Positions 36,952 to 51,068 of a stretch of DNA of 64,000 nucleotides are shown one piece after another. The stretch is from Gammaproteobacteria bacterium (GTDB lineage Bacteria > Pseudomonadota > Gammaproteobacteria > Pseudomonadales > IMCC2047). The notes beneath the pieces are model-generated. The model made no database searches and was not told where the DNA came from. It saw nothing but the letters and a program-made list of their open reading frames with translations. Position 1 is the stretch's first letter. Every line of letters starts with the position of its first letter. A program made the translations under genes and the position numbers. Location: assembly GCA_021773395.1 (NCBI GenBank), contig JAJFKB010000011.1, positions 248,001 through 312,000 on the forward strand, given 5' to 3'.

Positions 36952-37038
36952 GCCCAGGTGGTGAAATTGGTAGACACGCTAGCTTCAGGTGCTAGTGATC
37001 GCAAGGTCGTGGAGGTTCAAGTCCTCTCCTGGGCACCA
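36952..37038 (+). tRNA. leuV: tRNA-Leu (CAG anticodon)
   Basis: The 87-nt class II tRNA has an encoded CCA. The acceptor arms GCCCAGG/CCTGGGC pair, the anticodon stem CTAGC/GCTAG frames the loop TTCAGGT with anticodon CAG, there is a variable arm (TGATCGCAAGGTCGT), and GGTTCAAGTCC is the T loop. It decodes CUG and is the integration site of the adjacent elements. The symbol is by analogy with E. coli leuPQVT. Confidence 0.96.
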
Positions 37039-37041
37039 TTT
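37014..37041 (+). repeat. attL: tRNA-Leu 3' end
   Basis: The 28 bp GGTTCAAGTCCTCTCC...CACCATTT at the tRNA 3' end recur exactly at 47224-47251. This is the classic footprint of tyrosine-recombinase integration that regenerates the tRNA. Confidence 0.93.
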
Positions 37042-37156
37042 CTTAGTTAACTCTTTGTTTTTCAAGACATTTTAAATCTCGCAGAACATTGTTCAGCCAA
37101 GGTGGTACACCTTGGTGATACACCATGCGCAAAAGCGCGCATCTGCGAGGTGTTTT
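37041..37156 (+). repeat. R1: structured left-end repeat / integrase leader
   Basis: Nested inverted repeats: outer arms CTCGCAGA (37078-37085) / TCTGCGAG (37142-37149), inner CCAAGGT/ACCTTGG (around 37098-37116) and ATGCGC/GCGCAT. A diverged copy lies at 49471-49584 in which stem bases differ but pairing is kept. It ends at the integrase remnant's ATG, with GCGAGG upstream as ribosome site. It may be recombinase arm sites, a leader RNA structure or both. Confidence 0.7.
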
Positions 37157-37297
37157 ATGGCTTCACAAAGCCAATATCTAATCCGCAATCGTCACAGCAA
37201 CCAGTGATACGGTCGAGTAGTCATCCCGACCTTGTTACGCGACCAGTTTAACGGCAAGCGCGAAGTGCGCCGCTCTCTTCAAACCTCAAATTGTTGA
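37157..37297 (+). pseudogene. Integrase (tyrosine recombinase) N-terminal remnant
   Basis: The frame reads MASQSQYLIRNRHSNQ, TGA, then YGRVVIPTLLRDQFNGKREV and RRSLQTSNC, stop. The pattern YLIRNRHSNxWYxRVVIPxxLRxxFxGKREVRRSLxT is the arm-binding N-terminus of many tRNA-targeting phage integrases. The TGA at 37205-37207 stands where tryptophan (TGG) is expected. The gene stops after about 46 codons; the core and catalytic domains are missing. Its place beside attL, reading away from the tRNA, fits an integrase. Confidence 0.72.
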
Positions 37298-37351: not shown

Positions 37352-39733
37352 TTATACCCGTACTTGAGCTTGCGCACGCTCACGAACTTGCTGCTCAATG
37401 TGCAGGGATATTTTCGTGTAAAGCTCTGCCTCTTCATTTTCACGATCAGTAACTGTCACCACTAAAGCGTAATCTTCCAATTCAGCACTGAAATTCAATC
37501 CCCACTCTTTGTCTTGGCGGGTTACGACAACGAACCATTTTTCATTCGTATTAAATTGTTTTTTACGCCATACAGAAGACTGAACCGTTCCTTTACTTCG
37601 CTTGTCTGCGCTTATGTCGCGATTTGGAGTCGGGTCATCATTGCGCGTTTCGGTTTCTCTTTGAGTTTGTTGATTAAAGTGCTGTTGAACCGCTTCCAGT
37701 GTCTCCCCTTTAACCAGTCGATAATGGATCTTCGTAGCGAGATAATCCAGTCTGGTTGTTCTAACTGCTGGCGTATAGGCTAGCGTTACTCTCACTTCCC
37801 TTGCAGCACGATTTGATCTAAGAAAGTCTGCTGGTAATGGCAACTCATAGAAGTGATGCATATCGTTTTCGATGCCATCTTCCGCCATCATAACAACGGC
37901 ATGTTCCGTTGATCTAAATAATTCACTTTCTTCAATTTTGCCGTAGCCTGCGACATCACGTACGATGTCGCTTTTATTCTGCTCTTTGTAGGCCGCTTTG
38001 AATTCATCAGAAAAGGTATCTTCCGTTTCTCTTGGAACATTTGCATGATTAACCAGCATTGCCCTCAACAGATTTGCCGATGCGCGAGGATAGCTGTTTA
38101 GTAGCCTACCTGCTAAATGAGAAACATATGGGGTAGAAAAGCTTGTGCCACTGATTTCGCGAAATATCGTATTTCCAACAAAATTGGCATTACAAGTTAA
38201 AACGCCTAGCCCACGTTCTGTAATTCTATTGGTGTCATGAATGGGTGAGGCAAGATTACCCCCAATAGAGACCAATTCTGGTTTAATTGCGCCCTTAACA
38301 GACGGGCCATGCCGTGTGAATGGAGAAGGCTGATTTTCAGTCGCTGGGGATAGCTGTGCTATATGAGGATAGCGCTGCTGGTCAAAAGTTGCATTATGTT
38401 TTGCGAGGCTGCCAACAGTGATTGAGTTCATAGATGGTGCTGGGTCGATAATCACGCTTTCTGGATCACCAAGATAACTAGGGTATTCATCACGCCAGCT
38501 ATTGGCTGGAACATCTGGGTCTGTCGTCCCATTAAAGTTTCCAGCTGAAACAACAAACAAAACATTAAGCTCTCTCGCGAGTTTATCCAAAATATAAGCT
38601 ATACCTCGTATATGTTTTTGGTCATACGGGGCATTCTTGTTGCCTATAGATAAGTTAAATATGCGGCACTGGTGTTCTTCGACAAAATAGTAGACGGCAT
38701 CAATTAAAGTCTTTTCAATCGTATCTTCATCGTACTCACAATCATCATTCAGTATTTTCCCGTTGAGCAGATAAATTTCAGGTTCCCACGACCCAAGATC
38801 GTTACAGGTTTCAATATCACCGTATAAGGCTATACCCGCTACCGCCGTTCCATGACCGTGATGGTCAGACACATCATCAACCCCTAAAAACTCAGCACTT
38901 TCAGCAATCGCTGGGGCAAGCAGCGGGTGATTAGTGTTAATGCCGCTATCCAGAATACATACTTTTGCCGCCCCCTCTGGAGGTGACTGTATCTGAGCGG
39001 GTAGGTTGTTAATGTCACAGTTTAGTTGCTTGTACTCAATACCAGTGCTTGGTGTTAGGTCTACCAATCGAATATCAGAATGGTTGAGTAGTTGTTCTGC
39101 AATTTGGTTGTTTGCCTTAACTCGGTACATAAGAAGGCTGTCCAGATTAACCTTGTCAATCCGCTCAATCGCATTCTCATTTAGCCAGCCTTCAAAGGAA
39201 TGGCATAAAGCCAGCCTGTCGGGATGGTGAGCTACCGCAATTGGCCACAGCTCAATGTCTAACTGGTATTCTAGTTCAACAGGCAAACCATTTTTATTGA
39301 TAACCCAGCTTTTACGGTCTTCCGCAGTCCAGTTTTCAATACCATCTATAGCTTCAAGAATTTGTTTATAGGTTAGTGCTTCGTCTTCAAGACCCAAACG
39401 GTTGAGATGGTTTTCAAAAACCGTAAGACCTGCTTCAGTTGTGAATACAACGCAGATTTCTTTTTCTTCGTGGCTGATAAATTCAACGCCGTGTCGCTCA
39501 AGGTGAGCAACATCTAAATGACCTGTGTATTTTAGTTTTAGTATGAAGTTGCCAGGTCTTGACGTGAGTTGCAGTCGAGCATTCGTCATTGCCTGTGACA
39601 GGGATTGCTGGAGGCTTCCAGCGTGAGTAGCGATGTTGCCCCGATTAGCGCTAGGGGGCCCGCCTCTTCTTACACGTCTTCTATCGTTTTCTAACGGCTC
39701 TCTTTCGATCCCTAAATGTTCATAGTCAGGCAT
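37352..39733 (-). CDS. Cytoplasmic subtilase (S8 peptidase), last gene of defence operon
   Basis: The 793-residue protein has a subtilisin domain at about 255-590 with catalytic D262 (CILDSGIN), H294 (HGHGTAVAG) and S531 (SGTSFSTPYVS). The oxyanion asparagine lies in VVSAGN. There is no signal peptide or prodomain signature, so it should act inside the cell. The N-terminal 250 residues (KLKYTGHLDVAHLERHGVEF region) and C-terminal 200 residues are not recognised and may be sensing or docking domains. The gap to the AAA+ gene upstream is 14 bp. Likely role: ATPase-controlled proteolysis of host or phage proteins. Confidence 0.85.
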   Translation of the reverse strand: MPDYEHLGIEREPLENDRRRVRRGGPPSANRGNIATHAGSLQQSLSQAMTNARLQLTSRPGNFILKLKYTGHLDVAHLERHGVEFISHEEKEICVVFTTEAGLTVFENHLNRLGLEDEALTYKQILEAIDGIENWTAEDRKSWVINKNGLPVELEYQLDIELWPIAVAHHPDRLALCHSFEGWLNENAIERIDKVNLDSLLMYRVKANNQIAEQLLNHSDIRLVDLTPSTGIEYKQLNCDINNLPAQIQSPPEGAAKVCILDSGINTNHPLLAPAIAESAEFLGVDDVSDHHGHGTAVAGIALYGDIETCNDLGSWEPEIYLLNGKILNDDCEYDEDTIEKTLIDAVYYFVEEHQCRIFNLSIGNKNAPYDQKHIRGIAYILDKLARELNVLFVVSAGNFNGTTDPDVPANSWRDEYPSYLGDPESVIIDPAPSMNSITVGSLAKHNATFDQQRYPHIAQLSPATENQPSPFTRHGPSVKGAIKPELVSIGGNLASPIHDTNRITERGLGVLTCNANFVGNTIFREISGTSFSTPYVSHLAGRLLNSYPRASANLLRAMLVNHANVPRETEDTFSDEFKAAYKEQNKSDIVRDVAGYGKIEESELFRSTEHAVVMMAEDGIENDMHHFYELPLPADFLRSNRAAREVRVTLAYTPAVRTTRLDYLATKIHYRLVKGETLEAVQQHFNQQTQRETETRNDDPTPNRDISADKRSKGTVQSSVWRKKQFNTNEKWFVVVTRQDKEWGLNFSAELEDYALVVTVTDRENEEAELYTKISLHIEQQVRERAQAQVRV

Positions 39734-39747
39734 ATCATTCCCTTAAA

Positions 39748-40731
39748 TTATTTCTTATTTCGCTTATCCTTCACGGCGGCCTGTTTAATATCTTTTATCG
39801 TTAAAAATTCCTGTTCTCTAAGGATCATCCGTTTAATCGCTCGTCTAAGAATTCTTTCTATATCCGCCCCACTTCTATTTCCAAAAGTGGATATCAATGA
39901 TTTGCTCTCAACCTCAAATTGTCTGCGCACACCGCGAAGTTTAAGCGTCAATATTTGTCTGATCTGCTCACTATCTGGCAAAGGGAATTCCATTGCTTCA
40001 TCAAACCTTCTCCAGATTGCGGTATCAAGAATTTGCTCGTGGTTGGTAGCAGCAATAATTATGCTCTTCCCTGCATAAGCATCTATCATTTGAAGAACGG
40101 CATTTACTACACGCCTAAGTTCTCCATGTTCCGCTGAGTCTGCTCTTTCTTTTCCAATTGCATCAAATTCATCAAAAAGAACTACCATTTGATGTTCTGC
40201 TATAAAATCGAAAACCTTCCGAAGGTTCGCCGCAGTTTCACCGAGCAAAGATGAAACAAGCGCATCCAACCGAACAATAGCAATAGGTAAATCAAGCTCA
40301 TAAGCGATTACTTCGGCAGTGAGTGTTTTACCACAACCCGGAGGGCCATAGAAAATAGCTTTCGAAGATGGCCTCATCCCATAACTTTGCAGAACATCAC
40401 AGCGCCTGTTCTCTTCTAAGAACTCTTCGACTGCCAGAAGAGTATCGTCTGGAAGGACAATCTCTTCTATTGAGCGGTGAGGTTGGCGAATATCGAGTAG
40501 CGGCAAACCTCTTTCTCTATCTACAGGCGCTTCGGAAAGAAATTGCAATTCAGTATTTTGAGATGGCTTGGGGCTTTCTCCGTATAATATTTGCTCAAGG
40601 TCATTGGCTAAAAGGTGATGTTGCTTTTGACGCTCCTCAGCTATTACAGCTTCAGATACTTTTCTGAAAGCATTTGTATCGCCCTTAGAACCGGCCTTGA
40701 TAAGCTGTCTTAAAACTTTTCCATTAGCCAT
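39748..40731 (-). CDS. AAA+ ATPase, ClpX/FtsH-like, partner of the subtilase
   Basis: The 327-residue protein has an N-terminal helical region (1-110), then one AAA+ module: Walker A GPPGCGKT (129-136), Walker B VVLFDEFD (183-190), sensor-1 IIAATNHE, an arginine-finger region (WRRFDEAMEFPLPD) and a small helical lid. It is of the FtsH/Vps4 classical clade. It probably remodels a target for the S8 protease 14 bp downstream. It begins 2 bp after the GIY-YIG gene stop. Confidence 0.87.
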   Translation of the reverse strand: MANGKVLRQLIKAGSKGDTNAFRKVSEAVIAEERQKQHHLLANDLEQILYGESPKPSQNTELQFLSEAPVDRERGLPLLDIRQPHRSIEEIVLPDDTLLAVEEFLEENRRCDVLQSYGMRPSSKAIFYGPPGCGKTLTAEVIAYELDLPIAIVRLDALVSSLLGETAANLRKVFDFIAEHQMVVLFDEFDAIGKERADSAEHGELRRVVNAVLQMIDAYAGKSIIIAATNHEQILDTAIWRRFDEAMEFPLPDSEQIRQILTLKLRGVRRQFEVESKSLISTFGNRSGADIERILRRAIKRMILREQEFLTIKDIKQAAVKDKRNKK

Positions 40732-40733
40732 AA

Positions 40734-41939
40734 TTACACCTTTCTTTTAACCAGCGTTGCTGAATCAGTATCATAGACACAATTGCTGATACTTCCATCT
40801 TTTATTCTATCTACAACCTCATCTATCACGGATAAAGGAATTAAAAACCATTCCTTGGGTGAAACTGGGTTTCCAAACCGATCTTTAATCTCGATCTCTA
40901 GCTTTGCATTTTCAAAAAAACGATGTATGAGCTTTTCTAGCTTGGTTCGATTAATGTTATAAAGCTCATAGGTTGCCACTACCTCAACATCTGCCATTAA
41001 ATAGGTCGGATCAAGCTTTGCATTAGCGATGCGCTTTTTTACGTCACCACCTGTCACCCCGATCTTGTGAATGACTGTTCTATTTTCCGCAATCATCGGA
41101 TGTTCCGACTTACTTCTTAAAACGTATATTGTTCCGCTAGCCAGATCATCACCACTCAAGTCATCGTCAAATAGTGGCCCCGCTGACAATCCAACTATCC
41201 TTCTCCCCGCATCATCCTCATATAATGCTTTTTGTAATGACCGTAAAAGCAAATCACTTTCTGTTCCGTTGTCATAGATAACGCGCAAGCGATTGTCCTT
41301 CTTATCAAAACCGTGAGTGCGTTCTTCACTTAATTCAGCGACAAAGGCTTTTTGCCCATTAACGATAAACCAATCTCCCTGTTCGATTTTCGCCATATAG
41401 TCGCGGTCTTTCTGGTCTTTAAGCAGCTTAGCTTCCACTAAACCTAACTTTAAATCGCTTTGAACCTTATCGAAAAGCGGCTTATAATTTTCAAAGTCTT
41501 CACATCGAGTACGGTTCGCAATTTCTTCTGCGGCTTTTACTTCTGCTCTAGGTTTAACGTGTTTCAGGAAAGTAACATCACTCTCCTTTGGCGGCTCAAC
41601 GCCCAAGTCTGCGAGTAGTTCCTTATCGCTCTCATATTCCTTCGACGGTTCTGCTACCCTACCTACAGTTTCTAGTAATCCTTGACCATCCATCTCAGCG
41701 ACCAAACTGTGGCAATCCTCTTGTGCTCGAATTTGATCTAGCCGTGTGGCATAAAGCCGTTCAAAGATGTCTTTGTCTTCCCCATGAGCTGGCTCATGTC
41801 CATGCTCTTCAACAAAGCGCTGAATTTCTTCAAAGCCTGCAATAATGCGCTCTTCGCGTGGCGAATGAGCCACCTTTTTGACGGGTTCTAAATCTACACC
41901 TAGCTCGCCAAGAATATCTTTGTTTGATTTTTCAGCCAT
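40734..41939 (-). CDS. GIY-YIG (T5orf172/Mug113-like) nuclease
   Basis: The 401-residue protein has a C-terminal GIY-YIG-like domain at about 268-370: TIYVLRS, then HKIGVTGGDVKKRI, then the helix KLEKLIHRFF. The N-terminal part repeats a short motif (ILGELGVDLEP at 9-19 and LLADLGVEPPK at 108-118), probably protein docking. Residues 185-250 form a small beta-rich domain. It overlaps the helicase stop by 8 bp. In context it would be the nuclease arm of the system. Confidence 0.8.
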   Translation of the reverse strand: MAEKSNKDILGELGVDLEPVKKVAHSPREERIIAGFEEIQRFVEEHGHEPAHGEDKDIFERLYATRLDQIRAQEDCHSLVAEMDGQGLLETVGRVAEPSKEYESDKELLADLGVEPPKESDVTFLKHVKPRAEVKAAEEIANRTRCEDFENYKPLFDKVQSDLKLGLVEAKLLKDQKDRDYMAKIEQGDWFIVNGQKAFVAELSEERTHGFDKKDNRLRVIYDNGTESDLLLRSLQKALYEDDAGRRIVGLSAGPLFDDDLSGDDLASGTIYVLRSKSEHPMIAENRTVIHKIGVTGGDVKKRIANAKLDPTYLMADVEVVATYELYNINRTKLEKLIHRFFENAKLEIEIKDRFGNPVSPKEWFLIPLSVIDEVVDRIKDGSISNCVYDTDSATLVKRKV

Positions 41940-43983
41940 TGCTTTCCTCCGCTACCTTGCGTTGTAAGAAAGCAATGCCTTCTGCCATGCGCTTTTCCCA
42001 AGGGTCGGAAGAAGTTAACTCAGGCAAACGACCTCGATCCTTTTTAAACTTCACCGCACGGATCGCCAATTCTCTCGCTTCATCTTCTGTGAGATTGACT
42101 TTCTTTGCTGAAATAACAGCGGCTACCTGCTTCAAACTTTCCTCAGTCATAGCTTTGGCGAGTATTGCGTAAGCTTCGCTGAAAGGATTGATACGGTCGA
42201 TTAGATCAATATCCAGATCAGTCACATTCATCGCATATTTTCTTACCCCATCGATAAACGCTGTACTGCCTCCTTGAAGAGTATCATCGTCTTCGGTGAT
42301 GACCTCTTTTGCCTTTTGAGTAAGGTTAAGGGCGGCTATTGCGTGTTGCCGAACAGCTTCCTGATCTTCGTCATCCAGTTCGGGGTATTTGTCTTTAACG
42401 ATCTTTCCCATGCGAACCTGCGTTAGTTCTTCAGGTATCATTTCTTCATCAAAAAGGCCGCGCTCTAATGCAGTTTTATCCTGCACAAAAGCGGTAATCA
42501 CTTCGTTTAGGTCTTCCTGACAAATGCGCTGTGCATCTTTGCTTTTTGGTTCAGCTAACCCGTTAATCTCTATCTGAAATTGCCCAGTAGCTTCGTTAAA
42601 ACCTACATTTGTACCATTGGGGTCATAACCGTCCTCACCATAATCAAAGCCTTCTACTGGTGCGCTTTGGCTGTTCTTTGGCGTGAAGTTGAACTTAGGG
42701 GCAAGTACCTGTTCCATCAAAAGACTGGCGGCAATGGCTTTTAACGTATCGTTAACGGCATCAACGACCGCTTCTTCAGATGCGTCTGGCTCAGCAATCA
42801 GGTTAGTAAATCGTGCATGGGTTTTGCCTTCGGCATCACGGGTAGCGCGACCAATAATCTGGATAATTTCAGTAAGGCTGGAACGATAACCTACTGTCAA
42901 AGCATGTTCGCACCATATCCAATCGAAGCCTTCTTTTGCCATGCCAAGCGCGATGATGATGTCTACATGATCGCGGTCATTCTTAGCTTCAGGTCGTTTC
43001 AATGATGCAGATACCTTATCTCGCTTGGTAGTGTCATCATCTACCAAGTCAGCAATTTTGATAATCTTGCCGTTCTCTGCTTCGACTAGATGAAAGCCCG
43101 TATCAGGATCAGTCCCGCGCCATTCGCCAAACTCTTCAATGATATGCTCGACTTCTTTAATTTTGTCCTTGGTACTTTCCCGTGAATTTACATTGGGTAT
43201 ATGGATGATGGTTTTTTCATTCGGGTCTAAGACGCTCAAAATATCTTCCGCGTAAGAACCAGAATAGAAGTAATAGCCTATATCGAGGGTTTTTAGATAT
43301 TCATAGCCATTGAGCTGTTCATAATAGGTATAAGTAACAGTATCAAAGTTGGCCTCATCCTCTGGCAAAAGAACCGCTTCAGCATCCCCCCTGAAATATG
43401 ATCCTGTCATAGCGACAACATGTACTTTGTCACGGGCAATAAATTGTCCGAGATGAGCGCCTAGTTTATTGTCTGGGTTGGCGCTGACATGGTGAAATTC
43501 ATCGACTGCAATCAGGCAGTTATCGAAAGTTGGCACCCCAAATTTATCAACAGCGAACCGAAAAGTCGCATGGGTGCAGACCAATACTTGATCGTCACTA
43601 TCCATGAACGCTTTAACGGAGTTAACCTTGCCGCCATCCTCTCCGGGTGCGTTGCACAAATTCCATTTGGGGGGTACTTCCCAATCCCAATAAAAGCCAT
43701 TTTCTTTTAATGGCTCGTTATTGAAACTCGCACCAATAGATTTTTCAGGAACAACAATAATGGCTTTTTTTACGCCTTGATTGTTCAGCTTGTCAAGTGC
43801 AACAAACATCAATGCACGGCTTTTACCCGATGCAGGGGGTGATTTGATTAGAAGGTATTGCTCACCACGTTTCTCGTAGGCTCGCTCCTGCATAACACGC
43901 ATTCCCAATTCGTTAGATTTCTTTGAACTGCCATTGCAGGCATAGTTAACTGAAACTGATGGTATAGCTTTATGTTCCGTCAT
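41932..43983 (-). CDS. SF2 DEAD/DEAH-type helicase
   Basis: The 683-residue helicase has motif I SPPASGKS (48-55), motif II DEFH (161-164), motif III TGS (193-195) and motif VI QIIGRATRD (375-383), the arrangement of type I/III restriction-like translocases. The C-terminal 250 residues are helical and not recognised. The ATG overlaps the methyltransferase stop (TAATG) by 1 bp, showing coupling. Confidence 0.87.
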   Translation of the reverse strand: MTEHKAIPSVSVNYACNGSSKKSNELGMRVMQERAYEKRGEQYLLIKSPPASGKSRALMFVALDKLNNQGVKKAIIVVPEKSIGASFNNEPLKENGFYWDWEVPPKWNLCNAPGEDGGKVNSVKAFMDSDDQVLVCTHATFRFAVDKFGVPTFDNCLIAVDEFHHVSANPDNKLGAHLGQFIARDKVHVVAMTGSYFRGDAEAVLLPEDEANFDTVTYTYYEQLNGYEYLKTLDIGYYFYSGSYAEDILSVLDPNEKTIIHIPNVNSRESTKDKIKEVEHIIEEFGEWRGTDPDTGFHLVEAENGKIIKIADLVDDDTTKRDKVSASLKRPEAKNDRDHVDIIIALGMAKEGFDWIWCEHALTVGYRSSLTEIIQIIGRATRDAEGKTHARFTNLIAEPDASEEAVVDAVNDTLKAIAASLLMEQVLAPKFNFTPKNSQSAPVEGFDYGEDGYDPNGTNVGFNEATGQFQIEINGLAEPKSKDAQRICQEDLNEVITAFVQDKTALERGLFDEEMIPEELTQVRMGKIVKDKYPELDDEDQEAVRQHAIAALNLTQKAKEVITEDDDTLQGGSTAFIDGVRKYAMNVTDLDIDLIDRINPFSEAYAILAKAMTEESLKQVAAVISAKKVNLTEDEARELAIRAVKFKKDRGRLPELTSSDPWEKRMAEGIAFLQRKVAEESNG

Positions 43984-46742
43984 TATTGGGATACCTTCTT
44001 CTTACTCGTTTTGTTATCTGGGCTTGTCATCTTGGTGTATAGATCAAAGAGCTTTTCCAATCGCTCAGTGTCGTTTTTAAAACGGCGACCAATATAGATA
44101 CGTTCTAATACTTCATCATTGCGCTCATGAGCATGGCGTAGGTCTTCTGGCATATCTTCTGGATTATAAAGGTCAGCAATTGTGGCGGGAAAATGTGCTT
44201 CACGCGCGAGAAGGATATCCTCGGCACAGCGCGTTAAATCTTCTTTGTTTTTTTTAGTAAGTTTCGGGATAGGAAAAGTATTCCAACCTAAAGTATTCGA
44301 GTAACGAAAATCCGTTCTCAATTTTCCGCAAACGGTTGTGACCCAAACAATATGTAATTTTGAACCGACTAACGCCAAAACATATAATGGGCCGTCGTAT
44401 ATTGCGAAAGCTGTATTTGGAAAAACAACGTTTTTAGTTTCAAGAGATACTGGAAGGTAAGGTCTGTTTATTGATGAAACATTCGGAATTGCAATAGACC
44501 ACTCATTCGCACTATGCATCTCACGAAATTGATGAGGCCTTTCCGCCATTGATATTGCCATTGAATCAGGTGATGCAAGCCTAGATGTCCTTACATTCAC
44601 CACTCTTTGATTGATCTCTTCAATGCTGGTTGCACTTATAGGAAGTTCGTCATCAGGAAACCATAGGCAGGCACGAAGTGTACCTTTAACGATTTCTGCA
44701 CCTCCTTTAAAAGTTCTAAGGTTTTGAACGCTCAGCCCTTTCTTTATAAAGAGCTCTTTTTCAGAAAACTTCATTAGAAGCCCTTCTGACAACCCATAAT
44801 AGTTACCCTTTTGCATTTTCGGAAGGCCAGCCAATTGTTTAGTAGACTTATCTACAAAAACGTCATCGCCGGGAACAAGGTAAGGATTAATATTTTCAAC
44901 TACGTAGGCTTGATCTCCATCATTTATGTATTTCTTATTATTGTTTGATAAGGAACAACCAATTATTACAACTGTTACACCCGCATTATTTGTTGCTAAA
45001 TTTCTCCACAAAAAAGATTTTTCGGCAAATTGAATTTGAACTCCTTCTGTTAAAAACTCTTTCCAAAAAAAGGAAATGTTTTGCCCCTGTGAAATCGAGT
45101 TGGTGCTAACAAAAGCAAATTGAGACTTGCAATGGCTAAGATAATCTCTGGCCTTCCAGAACCATCCGCAAATATAGTCTAATGACTTCCATTTCACGCA
45201 ACTATCGCTGAAACATTCTTTGATATCCGACTTTTGTGCTTTAGTCTGATCTGCGTTCCCTTTATAAGGCGGATTTCCACATATATAGGTTTCCCCACCC
45301 TCATTCTCAAAATCAATCTGCGCTTGATCTAGCGGCGAACTGAATAGATCATCGCCATGCAATTTAACGGCTACACCGGTGGGAGGGCATATAGATAACC
45401 AATCCAGCCGAAGAGCATTACCACAAGTAATCCAGTTTTTCGCATCCAATGGCAAAAATTCAGCAAGCGCGAGCTTTTGGCCTCGATATAGCAAATCGCA
45501 TTGGTACTCGGCGATGATTAACGCTAGCCTTGCAATTTCTGCTGGAAAGTCCCGTAACTCTATACCTCTAAAATTAGTTAGCGGTATATCTGATGGGCGA
45601 CCTTCTTCACCGCGCCTAACATTAACCTCCGCCTCAATCTCTCGCATTTGCTTATAGGCAATGACAAGGAAATTACCCGAACCGCAGGCGGGATCAAATA
45701 CACGAATGTTAGACATGCGTTTGCGTAGGTTTAAAAGCTTTCTCGAGTTGTCTCCCGATTGCTCTAATTGCTCACGCAGGTCGTCCAGAAACAGGGGGTT
45801 TAATACTTTGAGGATATTTGGCACGCTTGTGTAATGCATACCCAATGCACCGCGCTCTTCGTCATCAGCTACGGCCTGAATCATCGAACCAAAAATATCA
45901 GGGTTGATTTGTTTCCAATCCAGTGTGCCGACATGCAGCAGGTAAGATCGGGCAATCTTTGTGAAGCGTGGTGCTTCTGTACTGCCAGAGAACAACCCCC
46001 CATTCACATAGGGGAAACCATCTGCCCAAGAACGAATGCCTTCATCCTCACGATCTGAATATTGTGTATTCATCGAACGGAAGATTTCACCAATTACCTC
46101 ATGTGTGTTTGATGAATCTTTCGCGCTCATTTGCTCAATGGTGGCAGTAAACAGATTGTCACCATTGAATATGTCCGTATCCTCTGCAAAGAAACAAAAA
46201 ATCAGCCGCGCCATAAAGTGGTTCATGTCATGGCGACGATCTGATGTACCCCATTCAGGGTTGGTTCTTAGCAGTTCCACATACAGGCGGTTTAAGCGGC
46301 TGGTGGCACGTATGTCAAAGGTATTATCGCGGATTTGCTTAACTGTGGTTATGCCCGCCAAAGGCAAGAAAAAACCAAAGTGGTTAGGAAAGTCTCTGTA
46401 ATCACAGGCAACGGTTTCACCAGAGATCAGGTCTTCGGCTTCGAGGCTGATACCATCAGTCGCCAGAATAAATTTGGCCTTTGCTTTGCTGGTTGCGGGG
46501 CTGGCTTTCAGATTGTTTAAGGTTGTAGTGACTTCGCCTTCAGTGCATACAGCAATATGAATATTGCTACGCTGTAATACGCCACCTTCAATATCTGACG
46601 CATTGGTGGAACCACTTTTTAGGCGTTTAATGGTGGTTGCCTTGTTGCCAAATGCCTCTAGGAAAGCGTAGGGGAAGCTTGCCGCATCAAATTCTTGCTC
46701 GGCGAGATTGCTAATGGCTTCTTCAATTTCTACAGCATTCAA
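43983..46742 (-). CDS. MmeI-like DNA methyltransferase lacking visible nuclease motif
   Basis: The 919-residue protein follows the MmeI layout: N-terminal domain (1-150), helical spacer (150-330), N6-adenine methylase core with motif I FDPACGSGNF (349-358) and motif IV NPPY (490-493), a target-recognition domain, then a helical C-terminus. In MmeI the N-domain carries D...ExK endonuclease residues; here the matching stretch (GGVLQRSNIHIAVC) lacks ExK, so the protein probably methylates only. The start is TTG with AAGGA 9 bp upstream. It likely marks host DNA for the helicase/nuclease downstream. Confidence 0.82.
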   Translation of the reverse strand: MNAVEIEEAISNLAEQEFDAASFPYAFLEAFGNKATTIKRLKSGSTNASDIEGGVLQRSNIHIAVCTEGEVTTTLNNLKASPATSKAKAKFILATDGISLEAEDLISGETVACDYRDFPNHFGFFLPLAGITTVKQIRDNTFDIRATSRLNRLYVELLRTNPEWGTSDRRHDMNHFMARLIFCFFAEDTDIFNGDNLFTATIEQMSAKDSSNTHEVIGEIFRSMNTQYSDREDEGIRSWADGFPYVNGGLFSGSTEAPRFTKIARSYLLHVGTLDWKQINPDIFGSMIQAVADDEERGALGMHYTSVPNILKVLNPLFLDDLREQLEQSGDNSRKLLNLRKRMSNIRVFDPACGSGNFLVIAYKQMREIEAEVNVRRGEEGRPSDIPLTNFRGIELRDFPAEIARLALIIAEYQCDLLYRGQKLALAEFLPLDAKNWITCGNALRLDWLSICPPTGVAVKLHGDDLFSSPLDQAQIDFENEGGETYICGNPPYKGNADQTKAQKSDIKECFSDSCVKWKSLDYICGWFWKARDYLSHCKSQFAFVSTNSISQGQNISFFWKEFLTEGVQIQFAEKSFLWRNLATNNAGVTVVIIGCSLSNNNKKYINDGDQAYVVENINPYLVPGDDVFVDKSTKQLAGLPKMQKGNYYGLSEGLLMKFSEKELFIKKGLSVQNLRTFKGGAEIVKGTLRACLWFPDDELPISATSIEEINQRVVNVRTSRLASPDSMAISMAERPHQFREMHSANEWSIAIPNVSSINRPYLPVSLETKNVVFPNTAFAIYDGPLYVLALVGSKLHIVWVTTVCGKLRTDFRYSNTLGWNTFPIPKLTKKNKEDLTRCAEDILLAREAHFPATIADLYNPEDMPEDLRHAHERNDEVLERIYIGRRFKNDTERLEKLFDLYTKMTSPDNKTSKKKVSQ

Positions 46743-46754
46743 CGATTATTTTCC

Positions 46755-46946
46755 TTATTCATCATTGTCTTTGTTGCTTGTTTTCTTGTCTTCAATCCAG
46801 CTTTCGATATCAGTCTGTTTAAATCGCCAACTACCGCCTACCTTAAAGCCCGGTAATTTCCCATCTGCGGCTAATCTGTAAGCTGTTTTCTCAGCCAACT
46901 TCAGGTACTCAGCGACTTCTTTCAAAGTCAAAATTTCATCATTCAT
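46755..46946 (-). CDS. Excisionase-like HTH regulator (MerR/AlpA-type HTH_17)
   Basis: The 63-residue protein is a single winged-helix excisionase fold: ILTLKEVAEYLKLAEKTAYR, then the wing KVGGSWRFKQTDIESWI. Such proteins are recombination directionality factors or operon regulators. It is first in the operon, 12 bp before the methyltransferase. With no integrase left it most likely regulates the operon. The start at 46946 is chosen from the domain boundary. Confidence 0.82.
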   Translation of the reverse strand: MNDEILTLKEVAEYLKLAEKTAYRLAADGKLPGFKVGGSWRFKQTDIESWIEDKKTSNKDNDE

Positions 46947-47040
46947 AGCGTAATCCGATGAATCATATACATGAGAGAATAAGGGAAAATTGAGCAAGCG
47001 ACAATGCACTTATAGTTTTCGGGGTTATAAACCCTGTTCA

Positions 47041-47087
47041 TCGGATGGAATTGGATGGATAAATGGCGATGGATATATAATGGCGAT
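47041..47087. promoter_or_regulatory. Direct repeats upstream of the HTH gene, possible operator
   Basis: AATGGCGAT occurs at 47062-47070 and 47079-47087 (17-bp spacing), and YGGATGG at 47042-47048 and 47052-47058 (10-bp spacing). They lie about 95-140 bp upstream of the HTH regulator start, where its operator or the operon promoter is expected. Confidence 0.4.
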
Positions 47088-47106
47088 ATGATACGCCCGC
47101 CTAAAT

Positions 47107-47196
47107 GAGTCGCATGAGCAACATTAGGGTGGTACACTTGGGTTCTACCTTGAACGTCAGATAGATTTTTTATTTTAAGGTTATCAATAAGTTACG
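47107..47196. repeat. R2: right-end repeat of island 1
   Basis: The first 22 bases (GAGTCGCATGAGCAACATTAGG) are identical to 49739-49760. Similarity continues through TCTACCTTGAACGTCAG for about 90 bp. It also carries GGTGGTACACTTGG, like GGTGGTACACCTTGG in R1, so both island ends may share recombinase or Xis sites. Confidence 0.75.
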
Positions 47197-47223
47197 GGCG
47201 CTCCGCAAGATTTAAAACACGAT

Positions 47224-47251
47224 GGTTCAAGTCCTCTCCTGGGCACCATTT
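47224..47251 (+). repeat. attR: exact copy of tRNA-Leu 3' end
   Basis: A 28-bp perfect repeat of 37014-37041. It marks the right boundary of island 1 and the left boundary of the HNH-Fic segment. Confidence 0.92.
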
Positions 47252-47371
47252 TGAAAACGTCCACAGATTACGAGAGACCATCCAGGACGCAGGTTCTTAG
47301 GTAGATTTTTTTGTTTCTGCCTTTCAGCACGCCTGTCTCTTCTAACTTTCTCAGCAATAAAAACTCACTAT

Positions 47372-47932
47372 CTATGACAAAAAAATATTTTCACGATGAT
47401 ATTCAAGAAAATCCAATGCTGGCTGAAATTTATCAGGACGCCCAATTTCTCTACCTTCATACGTTTTTATAGTGGCTTCATAGAAGCGATCCAGTGAAGC
47501 AATGGTTTTTGAAGTTTTGATAGTCATATCATCTTGAATAGTAATCATTCCTATATCAAATGCTTTATCATGAAGTACTGATAAGCAAAGGCCATTGCTT
47601 GGATTCAAACGATTTGAAGCATCAATTCTCCATGGGACGATATGGCTTGCCACAAGTAGTTTAGGGATTGATAGGCCGCTGATGCAGCAAGTGTTGTTGT
47701 ACGAACTTAGCACTGATTTTCTAAAAAAGTTTTGACCAATACGCACTTTTACCTTCACGGCTCTCGTTTCTCCGACATAATTTTCTGTATCTGGCAAATC
47801 ACCCGTTTCATCCGTTAGTGCTTGATTCAAAGCTTTGGAAGCCTCAATTGTAAAATCTTCCCAATTACTGCGCATTTCTTCCCACATTTTTTTATCTGCA
47901 TTTGATGCACCCGACAGACCTTTCCGTCCCAT
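47372..47932 (-). CDS. HNH endonuclease, N-terminally truncated
   Basis: The 186-residue product has an HNH_2-type nuclease domain in the C-terminal half: CCISGLSIPKLLVASHIVPW, then RLNPSNGLCLSVLHDKAFD. It begins MGRKGLSGASNADKKMWEEM, which in homologues I remember sits about 80-90 residues into the protein after a conserved N-terminal domain. That domain is absent here. The frame is closed by a stop a few codons upstream, and the fic gene ends 13 bp before. The nuclease core is intact, but function is doubtful. Confidence 0.75.
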   Translation of the reverse strand: MGRKGLSGASNADKKMWEEMRSNWEDFTIEASKALNQALTDETGDLPDTENYVGETRAVKVKVRIGQNFFRKSVLSSYNNTCCISGLSIPKLLVASHIVPWRIDASNRLNPSNGLCLSVLHDKAFDIGMITIQDDMTIKTSKTIASLDRFYEATIKTYEGREIGRPDKFQPALDFLEYHRENIFLS

Positions 47933-47945
47933 ACCCAGAACTCAT

Positions 47946-49028
47946 TTACCGGATCATCTTGTATCTCGTACTGCGGCCTTGCCCGACTCGTTCGAGGCGT
48001 TTCAGATCAACCAGTTTTTTAATAATAGCTTCCACGGTGCGGGGCGGAAAACCCAGCACCTCAATAGCATCTTTACGGCTAAAGGTTGTCTCTTTGCGGG
48101 TTTGTGCCCACTGCCAGAGAGCCAGCTGTTTTTCTGAAAGCAGTGTTTCAATGTTGTCTTTCTCTATCAGTTCTAAGGCGCTTTCTGCCTGTGCTTTTAC
48201 GATAGACAGAAAACAGAATAACCAGGGGTAGAGGTCTTCGGCTTCCGATTTCCAGCCACTTTGGGAGCGGCTCAGTGCAAGGTAGTAATCTGCTTTGCGT
48301 GCTTCTATTAATTTTTCGTGGGAGACCAGGCCAGTAAAAGCATAGCCTTGTTGAAGCAGTAATAAGTTGGTCAGTAACCGACTGGTGCGTCCGTTACCAT
48401 CCTGAAAGGGATGAATGGCTAGATATTCAAAAATAAAATTACCCATGCGGATAAGCGGGTGTTTGAATTTCTTCTCATCTGCCCATTGATACCAGCCCAC
48501 CAGCTCTTGCATTTCTTTTGGTGTCAGGTGTGGTGGTGTTGGGTCAAAGATAACGCCAAGTATATTGCCGCTTTGGTCTTTTGCTTCAACGCGGTTGGAA
48601 CCAAACTTATAGACGCCGCGTTGCCGTTGATCTTTATCCGAATATTGCAGCATGTCGTGGTGAAACTGCAAAATCAGTGATTCACTCAGTGCCATGTCTG
48701 CGAAGGATTCCAGAACGCGCTCAAGCATTTCCAGATACCCGGCCACCTCTTGCTCATCCCGGGATTTAAATTTGCGAATATGTAAGTTGCGGTAAAGCGC
48801 CTCAACCTGGTCATCACTGAGCCGGTTCCCTTCAATACGGTTGGAAGCCCCCGTTGAGGTAATAATGACTGACTGCGTAAGACGGCTGATGGTTTGTGGC
48901 AGGAATTTGCCTGTTAGACGAAAAGCGGTTTTAATCGCATCAATTTCCGACAATAGCGTAAAAAGTGCTTCAGTCTTCTCCGGGCTGAAGGTTAACCTTT
49001 TACTCAATCGTTCATTTTGCCAATCCAT
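47946..49028 (-). CDS. Fic-domain AMP-transferase, class II (SoFic-like)
   Basis: The 360-residue protein has the catalytic motif HPFQDGNGRTSR (H206), and the inhibitory helix STGASNRIEGN (E66) N-terminal to it, so it is class II. A C-terminal winged helix (FSRKDAIEVLGFPPRTVEAI) follows. It would transfer AMP from ATP to target hydroxyls. This architecture matches Shewanella SoFic-type proteins, some reported as anti-phage. The start at 49028 (MDWQNERL) is chosen; a longer frame adds 8 residues inside the TGTGA repeats. Confidence 0.87.
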   Translation of the reverse strand: MDWQNERLSKRLTFSPEKTEALFTLLSEIDAIKTAFRLTGKFLPQTISRLTQSVIITSTGASNRIEGNRLSDDQVEALYRNLHIRKFKSRDEQEVAGYLEMLERVLESFADMALSESLILQFHHDMLQYSDKDQRQRGVYKFGSNRVEAKDQSGNILGVIFDPTPPHLTPKEMQELVGWYQWADEKKFKHPLIRMGNFIFEYLAIHPFQDGNGRTSRLLTNLLLLQQGYAFTGLVSHEKLIEARKADYYLALSRSQSGWKSEAEDLYPWLFCFLSIVKAQAESALELIEKDNIETLLSEKQLALWQWAQTRKETTFSRKDAIEVLGFPPRTVEAIIKKLVDLKRLERVGQGRSTRYKMIR

Positions 49029-49052
49029 CTTATACTCACACACTAAAAACAA

Positions 49053-49077
49053 TGTGATATTGTGTGATTTAATGTGA
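49053..49077. promoter_or_regulatory. Three TGTGA repeats on a 10-bp period upstream of fic
   Basis: TGTGA occurs at 49053, 49063 and 49073, exactly one helical turn apart, with an inverted TCACA at 49036-49040. They lie 25-49 bp upstream of the fic start, where a repressor site would block transcription. The Fic C-terminal winged helix is a candidate ligand. Confidence 0.55.
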
Positions 49078-49448
49078 GAAAAGACAAGTGTTTCTCGTAC
49101 GGTTCTAGATTTTGAAATTCCGGTTTTATAGACACATGAAGCGGTTTTCCGCCTATAAATACAATCTTTGACAAGGTCGGCAGTTTGATATGTATATTAT
49201 GTTTTGTTTTCTATACATATTTTGACTTTGTACATAGAAAATCACCCTATTCTCGCCGACATTAATATCGGCTGATTGACTACTAAGTTTCCGTCTGATT
49301 GCCTGTTTTGATACCGAATAGCTCAAATACCCTGTCGAAAAGAGGGGTATTTCAGTATAAACGGTAGTTTATGCAACACTGAAAGTAACACGGGAATTTA
49401 CAAAATTCTGTTATTTATATTAAATACAAATAGTTATAAATATTCCTT
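49078..49448. other. AT-rich non-coding stretch upstream of fic
   Basis: Strongly AT-rich, with no gene, tRNA or clear repeat. Base composition differs from the flanking core genes, consistent with acquired DNA. Confidence 0.5.
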
Positions 49449-49471
49449 GAGTCCTCTCCTGGCACTATTTC
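49449..49471 (+). repeat. Degenerate third copy of the tRNA-Leu 3' end
   Basis: GAGTCCTCTCCTGGCACTATTT compares with AAGTCCTCTCCTGGGCACCATTT: one base deleted and two changed. It is followed by an R1-like sequence exactly as at the real tRNA, so it is the left end of a second element. Confidence 0.8.
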
Positions 49472-49584
49472 TTATCTAACCACTTGTTTCAAAATAAGTT
49501 TTAAATCTCGCAGAACATACTTCAGCTAAGGTGGTACACCTTGGTGATAAACTATGCGTTGGATGCGCATCTGCGAGGTGTTTC
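49471..49584 (+). repeat. R1': second copy of the structured left end
   Basis: Outer arms CTCGCAGA (49507-49514) / TCTGCGAG (49570-49577) and the core GGTGGTACACCTTGG (49530-49544) are kept. The inner ATGCG/CGCAT hairpin has different loop bases. It ends at an ATG (49585) like the first copy. Confidence 0.75.
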
Positions 49585-49704
49585 ATGATTTCACAATACC
49601 GAAGCTAGCCTAAAGTGAAGGACTACCCCTCTCATAAGCAGAAAGGTTTAGATAAATGGATGCTTGAAGATGCGTCGATAAAAGCTAACTATTTCGACAG
49701 ATAG
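49585..49704 (+). pseudogene. Second integrase remnant with internal deletion
   Basis: The ATG has the same position relative to R1' as the first remnant and starts MISQYRS, stop. The same frame continues open as PKVKDYPSHKQKGLDKWMLE and DASIKANYFDR to a stop at 49702. The simplest reading is an integrase reduced to its first few codons joined to its C-terminal tail. Identity of the tail is inferred from frame and position, not from a recognised domain. Confidence 0.5.
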
Positions 49705-49738
49705 GGCTGACATGTCGATAGCGTGAACATATGAATTA

Positions 49739-49830
49739 GAGTCGCATGAGCAACATTAGGTCAGCACACTTGGACTCTACCTTGAACGTCAGGTAGCTTT
49801 GTATTTTTAACATTATCATAAAGTCAGCGA
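49739..49830. repeat. R2': second copy of the right-end repeat
   Basis: The 22 bases GAGTCGCATGAGCAACATTAGG are identical to 47107-47128, with about 75 percent similarity for the next 70 bp by eye. It begins 35 bp after the integrase remnant and ends beside the stop of the hydrolase gene, marking the right edge of the accessory region. Confidence 0.75.
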
Positions 49831-49835
49831 AGCAA

Positions 49836-51068
49836 CTATACCACCAATTCCAGTGCCGCCTGCAGTAGTACATTGCAGCCTTTTTCGACATCATGCCAGT
49901 GGCTCCACTCATCCGGGGCATGGCTGATGCCGCCAACACTGGGGATAAACATCAGACCAGTGGGAGTGATGTCTGCGAAGAATTGCGCGTCATGGCCAGC
50001 GCCACTGGGCATTATCAACGTTTTATAACCTAGCTTTTTAGCATGTTTCTCCAGCAATTCGATCATTACCGGTGTGCAGGGCTTGGGTTCCAGCCAGCTC
50101 ATCTGGTCGTATTCAAACATTAATTTATGTCTGCGGGCGATGGAAGAACACACTTTACGACAGGAATTAGCAATATTAAGCATGACCTCTTCGGACATAT
50201 CCCTGCCCACCAGCGTGAAATCCACCTCGCCGGGCACGGTATGTGCAAAACCCGGTTTCAGTTCAACGCTGCCGATGGTAAGCCGGGTTTTATCGGTGCC
50301 TTCTTCGTCAATGATGCGGGGGATCTCATGGGCAAAATCCGCCAGTCCCATGAAAGCGTCGCTGCGAAGATCCATGGGTGCCGTGCCCGCATGATCCGCC
50401 TTGCCAATAAACTTGATAAGCCACTTGAATACACCAGAAATACCCTCCACCACGCCAATGGTGTTATGGGTTTGCTCCAGTACCGGACCTTGTTCGATAT
50501 GCAGCTCCAGGAAACCCATCAGACTGTCTGGGTCACGAGCCGCCTCCATGGCCAGATGATAGGGTAGTTGGCAGCTACCCATGGCCTCCCGTAAAAGCAG
50601 TCCGCCATGGTCTTTCGCTCGCTCCAGCCAATCAAGCTTTAGATTGCCAGTTAATGCCTGAGCCCCCAACATGCCGCCAAAGCGACCTTCCTCCTCGCTG
50701 GTGGCAACCACCTCCAAAGCATGTCGTAATTTAATATTATTTTCCTTAATGACCCGGATACACTCCAGACCGGCGACTACACCCAGGACTCCATCGAACA
50801 TACCCCCGGCAGGTACAGAGTCCAGATGGGAGCCAATTAGCAGTGCCTTTTGTTCCGCTCCGCCCAGTCTTCCGACAACATTACCGGCCCCATCCATGTA
50901 CACCTGTAATTCCAGCTCCTCCATCTGTTGCATCAGCCAGTAGCGGGCTTTCATGTCTTCTTCGCTAAAGCCCTGGCGGTAAATGCCCTGATCCTCCGCG
51001 TTATAACCAAACCGGCCCAGGGTGTAGATATCCTGTTTGACTCGCTCCAAATTGATGACAGGGTTCAC
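49836..51068 (-). CDS. M20-family N-carbamoyl-L-amino-acid hydrolase
   Basis: The 410-residue zinc hydrolase has metal-ligand motifs GSHLDSVPAGGMFDG, SEEEGRFGG, LELHIEQGPVLE and SGAGHDAQF near the C-terminus: the amidase/hydantoinase/carbamoylase branch (allantoate amidohydrolase, beta-ureidopropionase, L-carbamoylase). It releases CO2 and ammonia from a ureido amino acid. It is the last gene of the carbamoyl/amide operon, 21 bp after the asparagine synthase-like gene. Confidence 0.88.
   Translation of the reverse strand: MNPVINLERVKQDIYTLGRFGYNAEDQGIYRQGFSEEDMKARYWLMQQMEELELQVYMDGAGNVVGRLGGAEQKALLIGSHLDSVPAGGMFDGVLGVVAGLECIRVIKENNIKLRHALEVVATSEEEGRFGGMLGAQALTGNLKLDWLERAKDHGGLLLREAMGSCQLPYHLAMEAARDPDSLMGFLELHIEQGPVLEQTHNTIGVVEGISGVFKWLIKFIGKADHAGTAPMDLRSDAFMGLADFAHEIPRIIDEEGTDKTRLTIGSVELKPGFAHTVPGEVDFTLVGRDMSEEVMLNIANSCRKVCSSIARRHKLMFEYDQMSWLEPKPCTPVMIELLEKHAKKLGYKTLIMPSGAGHDAQFFADITPTGLMFIPSVGGISHAPDEWSHWHDVEKGCNVLLQAALELVV

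What the first reader, a model, noticed from the sequence alone, without database searches (positions are those of the whole stretch)
37352..46946. Six-gene composite defence candidate: HTH, MmeI-like methylase, SF2 helicase, GIY-YIG nuclease, AAA+ ATPase, subtilase
All six genes are on one strand with gaps of 2-14 bp or overlaps of 1 and 8 bp, so they form one transcription and translation unit. The first four supply control, self-marking, DNA translocation and DNA cleavage; the last two supply regulated proteolysis. Restriction-type modules are known, and so is AAA plus protease logic. I do not recognise this fused combination under a standard name (not BREX, DISARM, Dnd, Druantin or type I R-M). 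Hypothesis: DNA sensing by the helicase/methylase arm both cuts DNA and licenses the AAA-subtilase arm for abortive proteolysis.
Basis: partly seen in the sequence, partly recalled or inferred. Interest (0 to 1): 0.88.

Follow-up and report, generated by a model that had tools for sequence, protein, structure and literature searches.

The report
Restriction-like operon carrying the IetAS protease pair
Six bacterial genes that looked like one new anti-phage system are two known systems joined in one operon, a DNA-methylating restriction-like trio and a toxin-type protease pair, and relatives suggest that both halves repeatedly pair up with other defence genes in this way.

Summary
The operon is real: six minus-strand genes (37352-46946), gaps 2-14 nt, overlaps 1 and 8 nt. 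It is two known modules in tandem. Genes 1-4 are an HTH plus DnmA-YeeB-YeeC, the MmeI-like methylase, SF2 helicase and GIY-YIG nuclease described in Bacillus subtilis. Genes 5-6 are IetA-IetS, an AAA plus subtilase pair listed as antiphage.

Their union was found only here: none of 116 other trio loci with at least 300 nt held after yeeC has IetAS, and none of 29 other IetAS loci shows the trio. But both modules dock elsewhere. DRT3, SIR2-HerA and Gabija follow yeeC in other loci. IetAS sits inside type I operons (hsdM-hsdM-ietA-ietS-hsdS, 4 loci) or near type III-like mod/res (5 loci), scattered over the IetS tree.

Best reading: two autonomous defences stacked behind one promoter. A guard over, or control of, motor-driven restriction by IetAS is not excluded and is the interesting case. 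Exact 28-nt tRNA-Leu repeats bracket the operon.

The parts
46755..46946 (-). HTH_17 excisionase-type DNA-binding protein, 63 aa, likely operon regulator
   Evidence: Pfam HTH_17 2.6e-18; NCBIfam MAD1 HTH model 85.5 bits over cut-off 80; a homologue precedes dnmA in 11 of 80 named trio loci
43983..46742 (-). DnmA (YeeA)-like MmeI-family methyltransferase, 919 aa; methylase motifs kept, no conserved ExK nuclease motif
   Evidence: five MmeI Pfam domains; PADLOC type IIG 890 bits; MmeI 5hr4 7.1e-125, aligned only from residue 89 on; conserved columns of a 104-row alignment
41932..43983 (-). YeeB-like SF2 helicase/translocase, 683 aa
   Evidence: DEAD/ResIII weak matches; SPPASGKS, DEFHH, TGS, QIIGRATR invariant in 12 rows and nearly so in 22; Foldseek matches include HsdR and type ISP motors among many SF2 proteins
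40734..41939 (-). YeeC-like GIY-YIG (T5orf172/MUG113) nuclease, 401 aa
   Evidence: Pfam; G269, Y272, K292-I293-G294, R303, E335, H339 and E363-W364-F365 at 95% or more in 120 rows
39748..40731 (-). IetA, AAA+ ATPase (antitoxin side of the pair), 327 aa
   Evidence: PADLOC IetA PDLC02196 358 bits; NCBIfam IteA 267 bits, below its cut-off 510
37352..39733 (-). IetS, subtilisin-like S8 protease (toxin side of the pair), 793 aa
   Evidence: PADLOC IetS PDLC02198 1214.6 bits over residues 2-792; Peptidase_S8 1.7e-44; NCBIfam IteS 143 bits, below its cut-off 900
40729..40745 (-). junction of the two modules: SD-like AAAGGTG, yeeC stop, 2 nt, ietA ATG
   Evidence: sequence; no minus-strand promoter-like or terminator-like match here
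36952..37038 (+). tRNA-Leu(CAG), probable integration target
   Evidence: ARAGORN
37014..37041 (+). 28-nt direct repeat, copy 1 (tRNA 3' end), left attachment-like site
   Evidence: 100% identical to 47224-47251
47224..47251 (+). 28-nt direct repeat, copy 2, right attachment-like site
   Evidence: also found by a search of the own genome

Best explanation
The six genes are two autonomous defence modules stacked in one horizontally acquired operon. Module 1 (HTH-DnmA-YeeB-YeeC) works like a split, motor-driven restriction-modification system: DnmA marks host DNA by adenine methylation at an asymmetric site and has lost its own nuclease, YeeB translocates on unmarked DNA, and YeeC cuts. Module 2 (IetA-IetS) is a protease toxin held by its AAA+ partner and released by infection as a second, abortive layer. 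IetAS was captured just behind yeeC and now shares the operon's promoter and translation. Shown: gene content, conserved motifs, spacing, repeated docking of both modules. Inferred: enzymatic roles, co-regulation, order of action.
For: Module identity. Separability: 0 of 116 trio loci with at least 300 nt held after yeeC carry IetA or IetS, 0 of 20 further phylum loci show it in their shorter flanks, and 0 of 29 IetAS loci show the trio (16 checked, all 29 within 4 kb on the same strand). Interchangeable neighbours after yeeC: Drt3a-Drt3b by PADLOC in L041 and, on a viral contig with a 48% YeeB, in L161, and by homology in L052 and (with another gene between the two) L051; SIR2-HerA in L037 and L063; GajA-GajB in L029 (73 nt away) and L139, GajA in L048; a short-Argonaute type gene in L044 (54 nt away); AbiD in L062 (25 nt away). 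The first three systems are known (recalled) to act alone. Coupled ORFs of 250 aa or more follow yeeC in 24 of 112 loci against 69 of 606 other ORFs in the same DNA. Of 16 other IetAS loci, 15 have an upstream ORF called, 21-432 nt before ietA, against 2 nt here; of the later ones L203 has 11 nt.
Against: IetAS sits in R-M operons often: 9 of 29 loci by hits of 150 bits or more, in four of them between hsdM and hsdS with a 4-nt ietS/hsdS overlap. That favours a functional link over mere stacking. The B. subtilis trio did not protect against three phages (PMC9973331), so restriction by the trio is not certain, although the same passages say that Vibrio crassostreae dnmA and yeeB deletions raised sensitivity to some phages. 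Not every coupled gene after yeeC is a defence match: L023, L028, L039, L061 and L098 have none in PADLOC.
Confidence: 0.6

Rival explanations
1. Guardian: IetAS watches the restriction arm, as PrrC watches EcoprrI. While the DnmA-YeeB-YeeC complex is intact IetS is restrained; a phage anti-restriction protein that blocks the motor or methylase releases IetS, which kills the cell.
For: PrrC is encoded inside a type IC operon and fires when the enzyme is inhibited (PMC12707154 passages; PMC3874165 passages). IetAS lies between hsdM and hsdS in 4 loci and next to or near mod/res in 5, on separate branches of the IetS tree (type I needs 4 changes, at least 3 by well-supported branches; type III-like 4). 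A related pair acts as toxin/antitoxin (SGI1 S025/S026, PMC5006074 passages).
Against: Close IetAS relatives stand alone on plasmids, so they need no R-M partner. The R-M classes that host IetAS are unrelated, so a specific contact would have to be re-invented. The Gabija comparison is too small to exclude general defence-island clustering (1 of 10 against 11 of 29, p = 0.13).
Confidence: 0.2
2. Restriction-control protease: IetAS is a dedicated restriction-alleviation machine that destroys the translocating motor (YeeB, HsdR or Res) when it runs on the host's own unmodified DNA, as ClpXP does for HsdR.
For: ClpXP degrades translocation-competent EcoKI restriction complexes (PMC11109961 abstract; PMC12707154 and PMC3874165 passages). 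Where the R-M set next to IetAS is held whole it contains a helicase-type motor: HsdR, Res or YeeB. AAA+ plus protease is the same logic.
Against: Standalone IetAS exists. A relative behaves as a toxin on its own. The 116 trio loci examined do without it.
Confidence: 0.1
3. One reading: one dedicated six-gene machine in which DNA engagement by the methylase-helicase arm licenses abortive proteolysis.
For: Tight spacing across the whole operon.
Against: The combination was seen only in this window, and both modules occur elsewhere without each other.
Confidence: 0.05
4. Passive cargo: the pair is an addiction module (toxin-antitoxin) that stabilises the 10-kb island, with no share in phage defence.
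For: Such pairs are reported to maintain SGI1 and the plasmid pTiC58 (PMC5006074 title, passages and its reference list); the island is bracketed by tRNA repeats, and I recognised no integrase among the listed ORFs.
Against: The PADLOC family is listed as antiphage; the same docking place holds other defence systems in other trio loci.
Confidence: 0.05

Closest known systems
DnmA-YeeB-YeeC (yeeABC) of Bacillus subtilis
   Same: MmeI-like m6A methylase without a nuclease motif, SF2 helicase, T5orf172/GIY-YIG protein, in the same order
   Different: HTH gene in front; IetAS appended; B. subtilis YeeB and YeeC are said to lack C-terminal stretches found in Vibrio
IetAS / IteAS (pTiC58, SGI1 S026-S025, PADLOC IetAS)
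   Same: AAA ATPase followed by S8 protease, 358 and 1214.6 bits to PADLOC models
   Different: below the NCBIfam equivalog cut-offs; sits 2 nt behind yeeC, while 15 of 16 relatives first examined have 21-432 nt to an upstream ORF
PrrC embedded in EcoprrI; PARIS
   Same: an abortive module carried in or beside a restriction system
   Different: protease instead of a tRNA nuclease; appended, not embedded, here; no evidence of sequestration
ClpXP control of EcoKI
   Same: AAA+ protease acting on a translocating restriction motor
   Different: ClpXP is a host housekeeping machine, IetAS is operon-encoded and a subtilase; no action on YeeB shown
MADS (methylation-associated defence system)
   Same: HTH passes the NCBIfam MAD1 cut-off
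   Different: mad2 similarity of the methylase is only 35 bits; the only other mad match is a weak AAA hit to mad8, 21 bits

Membership tests
DnmA-YeeB-YeeC | MmeI-family methylase without REase motif, then SF2 helicase, then T5orf172/GIY-YIG, same strand | tested here: met
   order matches PMC9973331. D50 is 95% conserved but no E-x-K column pair is, in 104 rows; 11 rows were looked at directly (motif position recalled)
DnmA-YeeB-YeeC | m6A at a non-palindromic site; antiphage activity | not testable with these tools
   needs methylome and plaque assays
IetAS | ietA directly followed by ietS, PADLOC models | tested here: met
   PDLC02196 358 bits, PDLC02198 1214.6 bits
IetAS | NCBIfam equivalog cut-offs for IteA and IteS | tested here: not met
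   267 of 510 and 143 of 900 bits; a subfamily outside that narrow definition
IetAS | Walker A/B in IetA and Asp-His-Ser triad in IetS (motifs recalled) | tested here: met
   GPPGCGKT, LFDEFD; LDSGIN, HGHGT, GTSFSTP
IetAS | toxin-antitoxin or antiphage activity | not testable with these tools
   needs expression and plaque assays
Type IIG/IIL (MmeI) | fused PD-(D/E)xK nuclease in the N-terminal domain | tested here: not met
   the MmeI structure aligns only from residue 89
MADS | mad1-mad8 gene set | tested here: not met
   only the HTH matches well
DISARM / BREX | drmA/drmB/drmC or pglZ/brxC core genes (recalled) | tested here: not met
   only methylase-domain matches (DrmMI 86.5 bits, PglX up to 25 bits), no core gene among the listed matches of the eight proteins
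Type I R-M | HsdM, HsdS, HsdR | tested here: not met
   no HsdS or HsdR match among the eight window proteins; N6_Mtase only as a weak match of DnmA

The most novel reading that the evidence does not exclude
IetAS is a recurrent partner of motor-driven restriction systems (type I, type III-like and DnmA-YeeB-YeeC) and either guards them against anti-restriction proteins or proteolytically controls their motors. The operon here is an independent instance, and DnmA-YeeB-YeeC is a general chassis that docks one interchangeable abortive module (IetAS, DRT3, SIR2-HerA, Gabija) behind yeeC.
Probability: 0.3. Interest if true: 0.75.

Novelty: new variant of a known kind. Interest (0 to 1): 0.5.

Why it matters
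If the docking is functional, one operon grammar links restriction to abortive proteolysis and would show what triggers IetS, for which I found no answer in the passages read. It also gives a test bed: the same core (DnmA-YeeB-YeeC) with several different attached modules, and the same module (IetAS) in three R-M classes. If it is only stacking, it still shows how complete defence systems are assembled under shared translation, and that the PADLOC models used here, which name the methylase type IIG and the pair IetAS but have no good model for YeeB or YeeC, do not show the operon as one.

Tried and rejected
MADS was considered because the HTH passes the MAD1 model; rejected, as no other mad gene matches well. 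MmeI-type self-cutting by DnmA was rejected from conserved columns. Mobility: the end motifs near the tRNA repeats were sought in 38 genomes (own plus relatives) and found only in this one; the empty site could not be shown, because the neighbouring gene 49836-51068 had no match in five relatives. The YeeB model (mean pLDDT 68) gave only generic SF2 matches, HsdR and type ISP among them; the YeeC model (pTM 0.38) was not searched. The Gabija control was too small to be significant. The IetS tree shows R-M context not clustered, i.e. repeated gain or loss. A paper search for the Vibrio crassostreae study found nothing held. Searches for prior reports of the combination, of nested modules or of IetAS in R-M operons listed none that says so in title or start of abstract; of the listed papers only five were opened (PMC9973331, PMC5006074, PMC11109961, PMC12707154, PMC3874165), by passages, one section or abstract. 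The library holds open-licence papers only. PMC12629846 (defence hotspots in Pseudomonas islands, holds the word IetAS) was listed and not read.

The 127 distinct loci were found by YeeB; 112 of them have all three genes held. Looked at were 3 of 264 plasmid records with YeeB, 1 of 99 E. coli records, and 4 of 531 plasmid records with IetS. R-M probes came from IetAS loci themselves, so that count is partly circular; Pfam was run on R-M genes of L131, L127 and the mod gene of L134 only, the rest are named by similarity to these. L117 (same place as L024) and L172 (identical YeeB to L153) were dropped as duplicates; L207 was dropped from the tree as too short; the gene caller missed L048, which has a coupled GajA ORF. 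L121 was left out of the PADLOC scan after a strand error; L066 (contains N) was not scanned. L202 and L203 come from one genus. Some IetS copies carry stops or are split (L188, L191, L192, L193/L198). The output was cut in the middle (end of L136, start of L137). Gene starts are those of a simple caller, so overlaps rest on them.
Full report
Observation. Pfam confirms the domains. G+C is 42-44% in the 2-kb blocks from 38001 to 50000 against 46-53% in most others, which fits horizontal gain.

Module 1. tblastn of the helicase against plasmids met 264 records, 154 with a place covering at least 80%; one of the 30 listed is annotated as YeeB. PMC9973331 (passages and section 8 seen) describes dnmA-yeeB-yeeC in B. 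subtilis: an MmeI-like methylase without REase motif, an SF2 helicase and a T5orf172/GIY-YIG protein, conserved in that order. It reports no effect of single deletions on three phages in B. subtilis, and cites a Vibrio crassostreae study (not seen here) in which dnmA and yeeB deletions raised sensitivity to some phages. In our alignments the methylase motifs (DPACGSGNF, GNPP) are kept at 95% or more in 104 rows, and no ExK pair is conserved in the N-terminal domain; YeeC keeps the GIY-YIG residues in 120 rows; YeeB keeps the helicase motifs. So the methylase has probably lost its blade and the neighbours supply motor and nuclease. All three genes were detected in 77 of 80 named loci (the other three loci begin close to yeeB).

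Module 2. The AAA-S8 pair matches PADLOC IetA/IetS with 358 and 1214.6 bits but lies below the NCBIfam equivalog cut-offs. The related SGI1 pair S026-S025 is a working toxin-antitoxin with the protease as toxin (PMC5006074, passages). Four close plasmid relatives stand without the trio or other R-M genes of the probe set.

Is the union conserved? Not in what was examined. Of 127 distinct loci found by YeeB (80 named genomes, 34 viral contigs, 9 class genomes, 4 plasmid/E. coli), 112 have all three trio genes held, 116 have at least 300 nt held after yeeC, and none of the 127 shows IetA or IetS. Twenty more phylum loci show none in their shorter flanks: 17 have 175-326 nt after yeeC and 3 lack its end. 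Of 29 IetAS loci (4 plasmid, 12 class, 13 phylum) none shows the trio (16; all 29 within 4 kb, same strand). In the class sample 13 of 369 genomes matched YeeB and 13 of 369 IetS, the own genome counted in both; the only other genome in both lists, G203, has a short YeeB fragment on a different contig.

What lies at the same place elsewhere? An ORF of 250 aa or more starts within -40 to +10 nt of the yeeC stop in 24 of 112 loci, against 69 of 606 other ORFs in the same DNA (p = 0.006; loci are related, so the p-value is only a guide). Scanned occupants of this region include Drt3a+Drt3b (L041; L161 on a viral contig with a 48% identical YeeB; L051 and L052 by homology, L051 with another gene between the two), SIR2+HerA (L037, L063), GajA+GajB (L029 at +73 nt; L139), GajA (L048), a short-Argonaute type gene (L044 at +54), AbiD (L062 at +25), PDC-M68A (L021), PDC-S06 (L072), HEC-08 (L162) and, more weakly, HEC-05-like (L069 at +42), PDC-S60-like (L155) and PRTase_III-A-like (L165). 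No PADLOC match: L023, L028, L039 (a MazG protein), L061, L074, L098 and the second gene of L165; L046 had only 29 bits. A second slot lies between dnmA and yeeB: 38 of 72 loci have more than 400 nt there. Of ten insert representatives scanned with Pfam, four had a match (RhuM, AlbA_2 ATPase, YhcG nuclease, CoiA_N) and six had none.

What lies around IetAS elsewhere? In four loci it is inside a type I operon, hsdM-hsdM-ietA-ietS-hsdS (L131, L202, L203, L204; hsdR follows in three, the L202 contig ends before it), each with a 4-nt ietS/hsdS overlap. In five it is next to (L127, L133, L134) or near (L129, L130) a type III-like mod gene, with res held in four (not L129). By hits of 150 bits or more that is 9 of 29; at 80 bits 11 of 29, against 1 of 10 Gabija loci (p = 0.13, not significant). 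On the IetS tree of 29 rows the type I and type III-like labels each need four changes and are not clustered, so these unions arose or broke up repeatedly. The window's IetS groups with five copies without R-M probes hits and one type III-like copy, so its union with the trio looks like a separate event.

Mechanism. Most likely the operon stacks two autonomous defences. The repeated entry of IetAS into operons of three unrelated restriction classes, each with a helicase-type motor, leaves two bolder readings: a guardian like PrrC in EcoprrI, or a built-in restriction-control protease like ClpXP for HsdR (precedents: PMC12707154 and PMC3874165 passages; PMC11109961 abstract). Nothing here shows contact between the modules.

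Island. The 28 nt at the 3' end of tRNA-Leu (37014-37041) recur exactly at 47224-47251; a degenerate copy is visible near 49449, beyond HNH and Fic genes. A homologous end motif follows copies 1 and 3, and another precedes copy 2 and the end of the region. I recognised no integrase among the listed ORFs, by eye only. None of the relatives has the end motifs.

Verdict. Real operon, known modules, a union seen only here, but an instance of a docking pattern that I did not find described in titles or abstract starts listed.

Noticed in passing
window 37014-37041, 47224-47251, about 49449-49470: Three attachment-like copies of the tRNA-Leu 3' end in tandem (two exact, one degenerate) with homologous end motifs (37032-37168 like 49461-49596; 47107-47192 like 49739-49824). 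The last unit, 49461-49824, looks empty of cargo. No integrase recognised.
   Followed up: partly
window 47372-49052: Second segment between repeats 2 and 3 carries an HNH endonuclease (PADLOC HNH 266 bits) and a SoFic-like Fic protein (145 bits), so two defence-type cargos sit side by side.
   Followed up: partly
L131, L202, L203, L204: All four type I operons found to host IetAS carry two consecutive hsdM genes before ietA and a 4-nt ietS/hsdS overlap.
   Followed up: partly
L161, L041, L051, L052: DRT3 (Drt3a-Drt3b) follows yeeC in two distant branches of the trio, one on a viral contig; L051 has an extra gene between Drt3a and Drt3b.
   Followed up: partly
trio loci, between dnmA and yeeB: 38 of 72 loci have more than 400 nt there; homology clusters include a RhuM group of 7, an AlbA_2 group of 5 and a YhcG group of 5, named from one scanned member each: a second cargo slot.
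   Followed up: partly
window 46755-46946: The NCBIfam MAD1 model labels this HTH above its cut-off although no MADS system is present, so the label alone could mislead annotation.
   Followed up: yes
E. coli genomes: 99 of 5426 complete E. coli genomes carry DNA 60-80% identical to part of the methylase-helicase region (none over 80% of the query), 99 places on chromosomes and 1 on a plasmid.
   Followed up: partly
phages collection: Named phages hardly carry YeeB: 3 of 50,697 records match, none over 80% of the query, whereas 34 distinct viral contigs do.
   Followed up: no
L127, L133, L135: An SNF2-type helicase lies upstream of IetAS in the type III-like setting, a possible further partner.
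   Followed up: no
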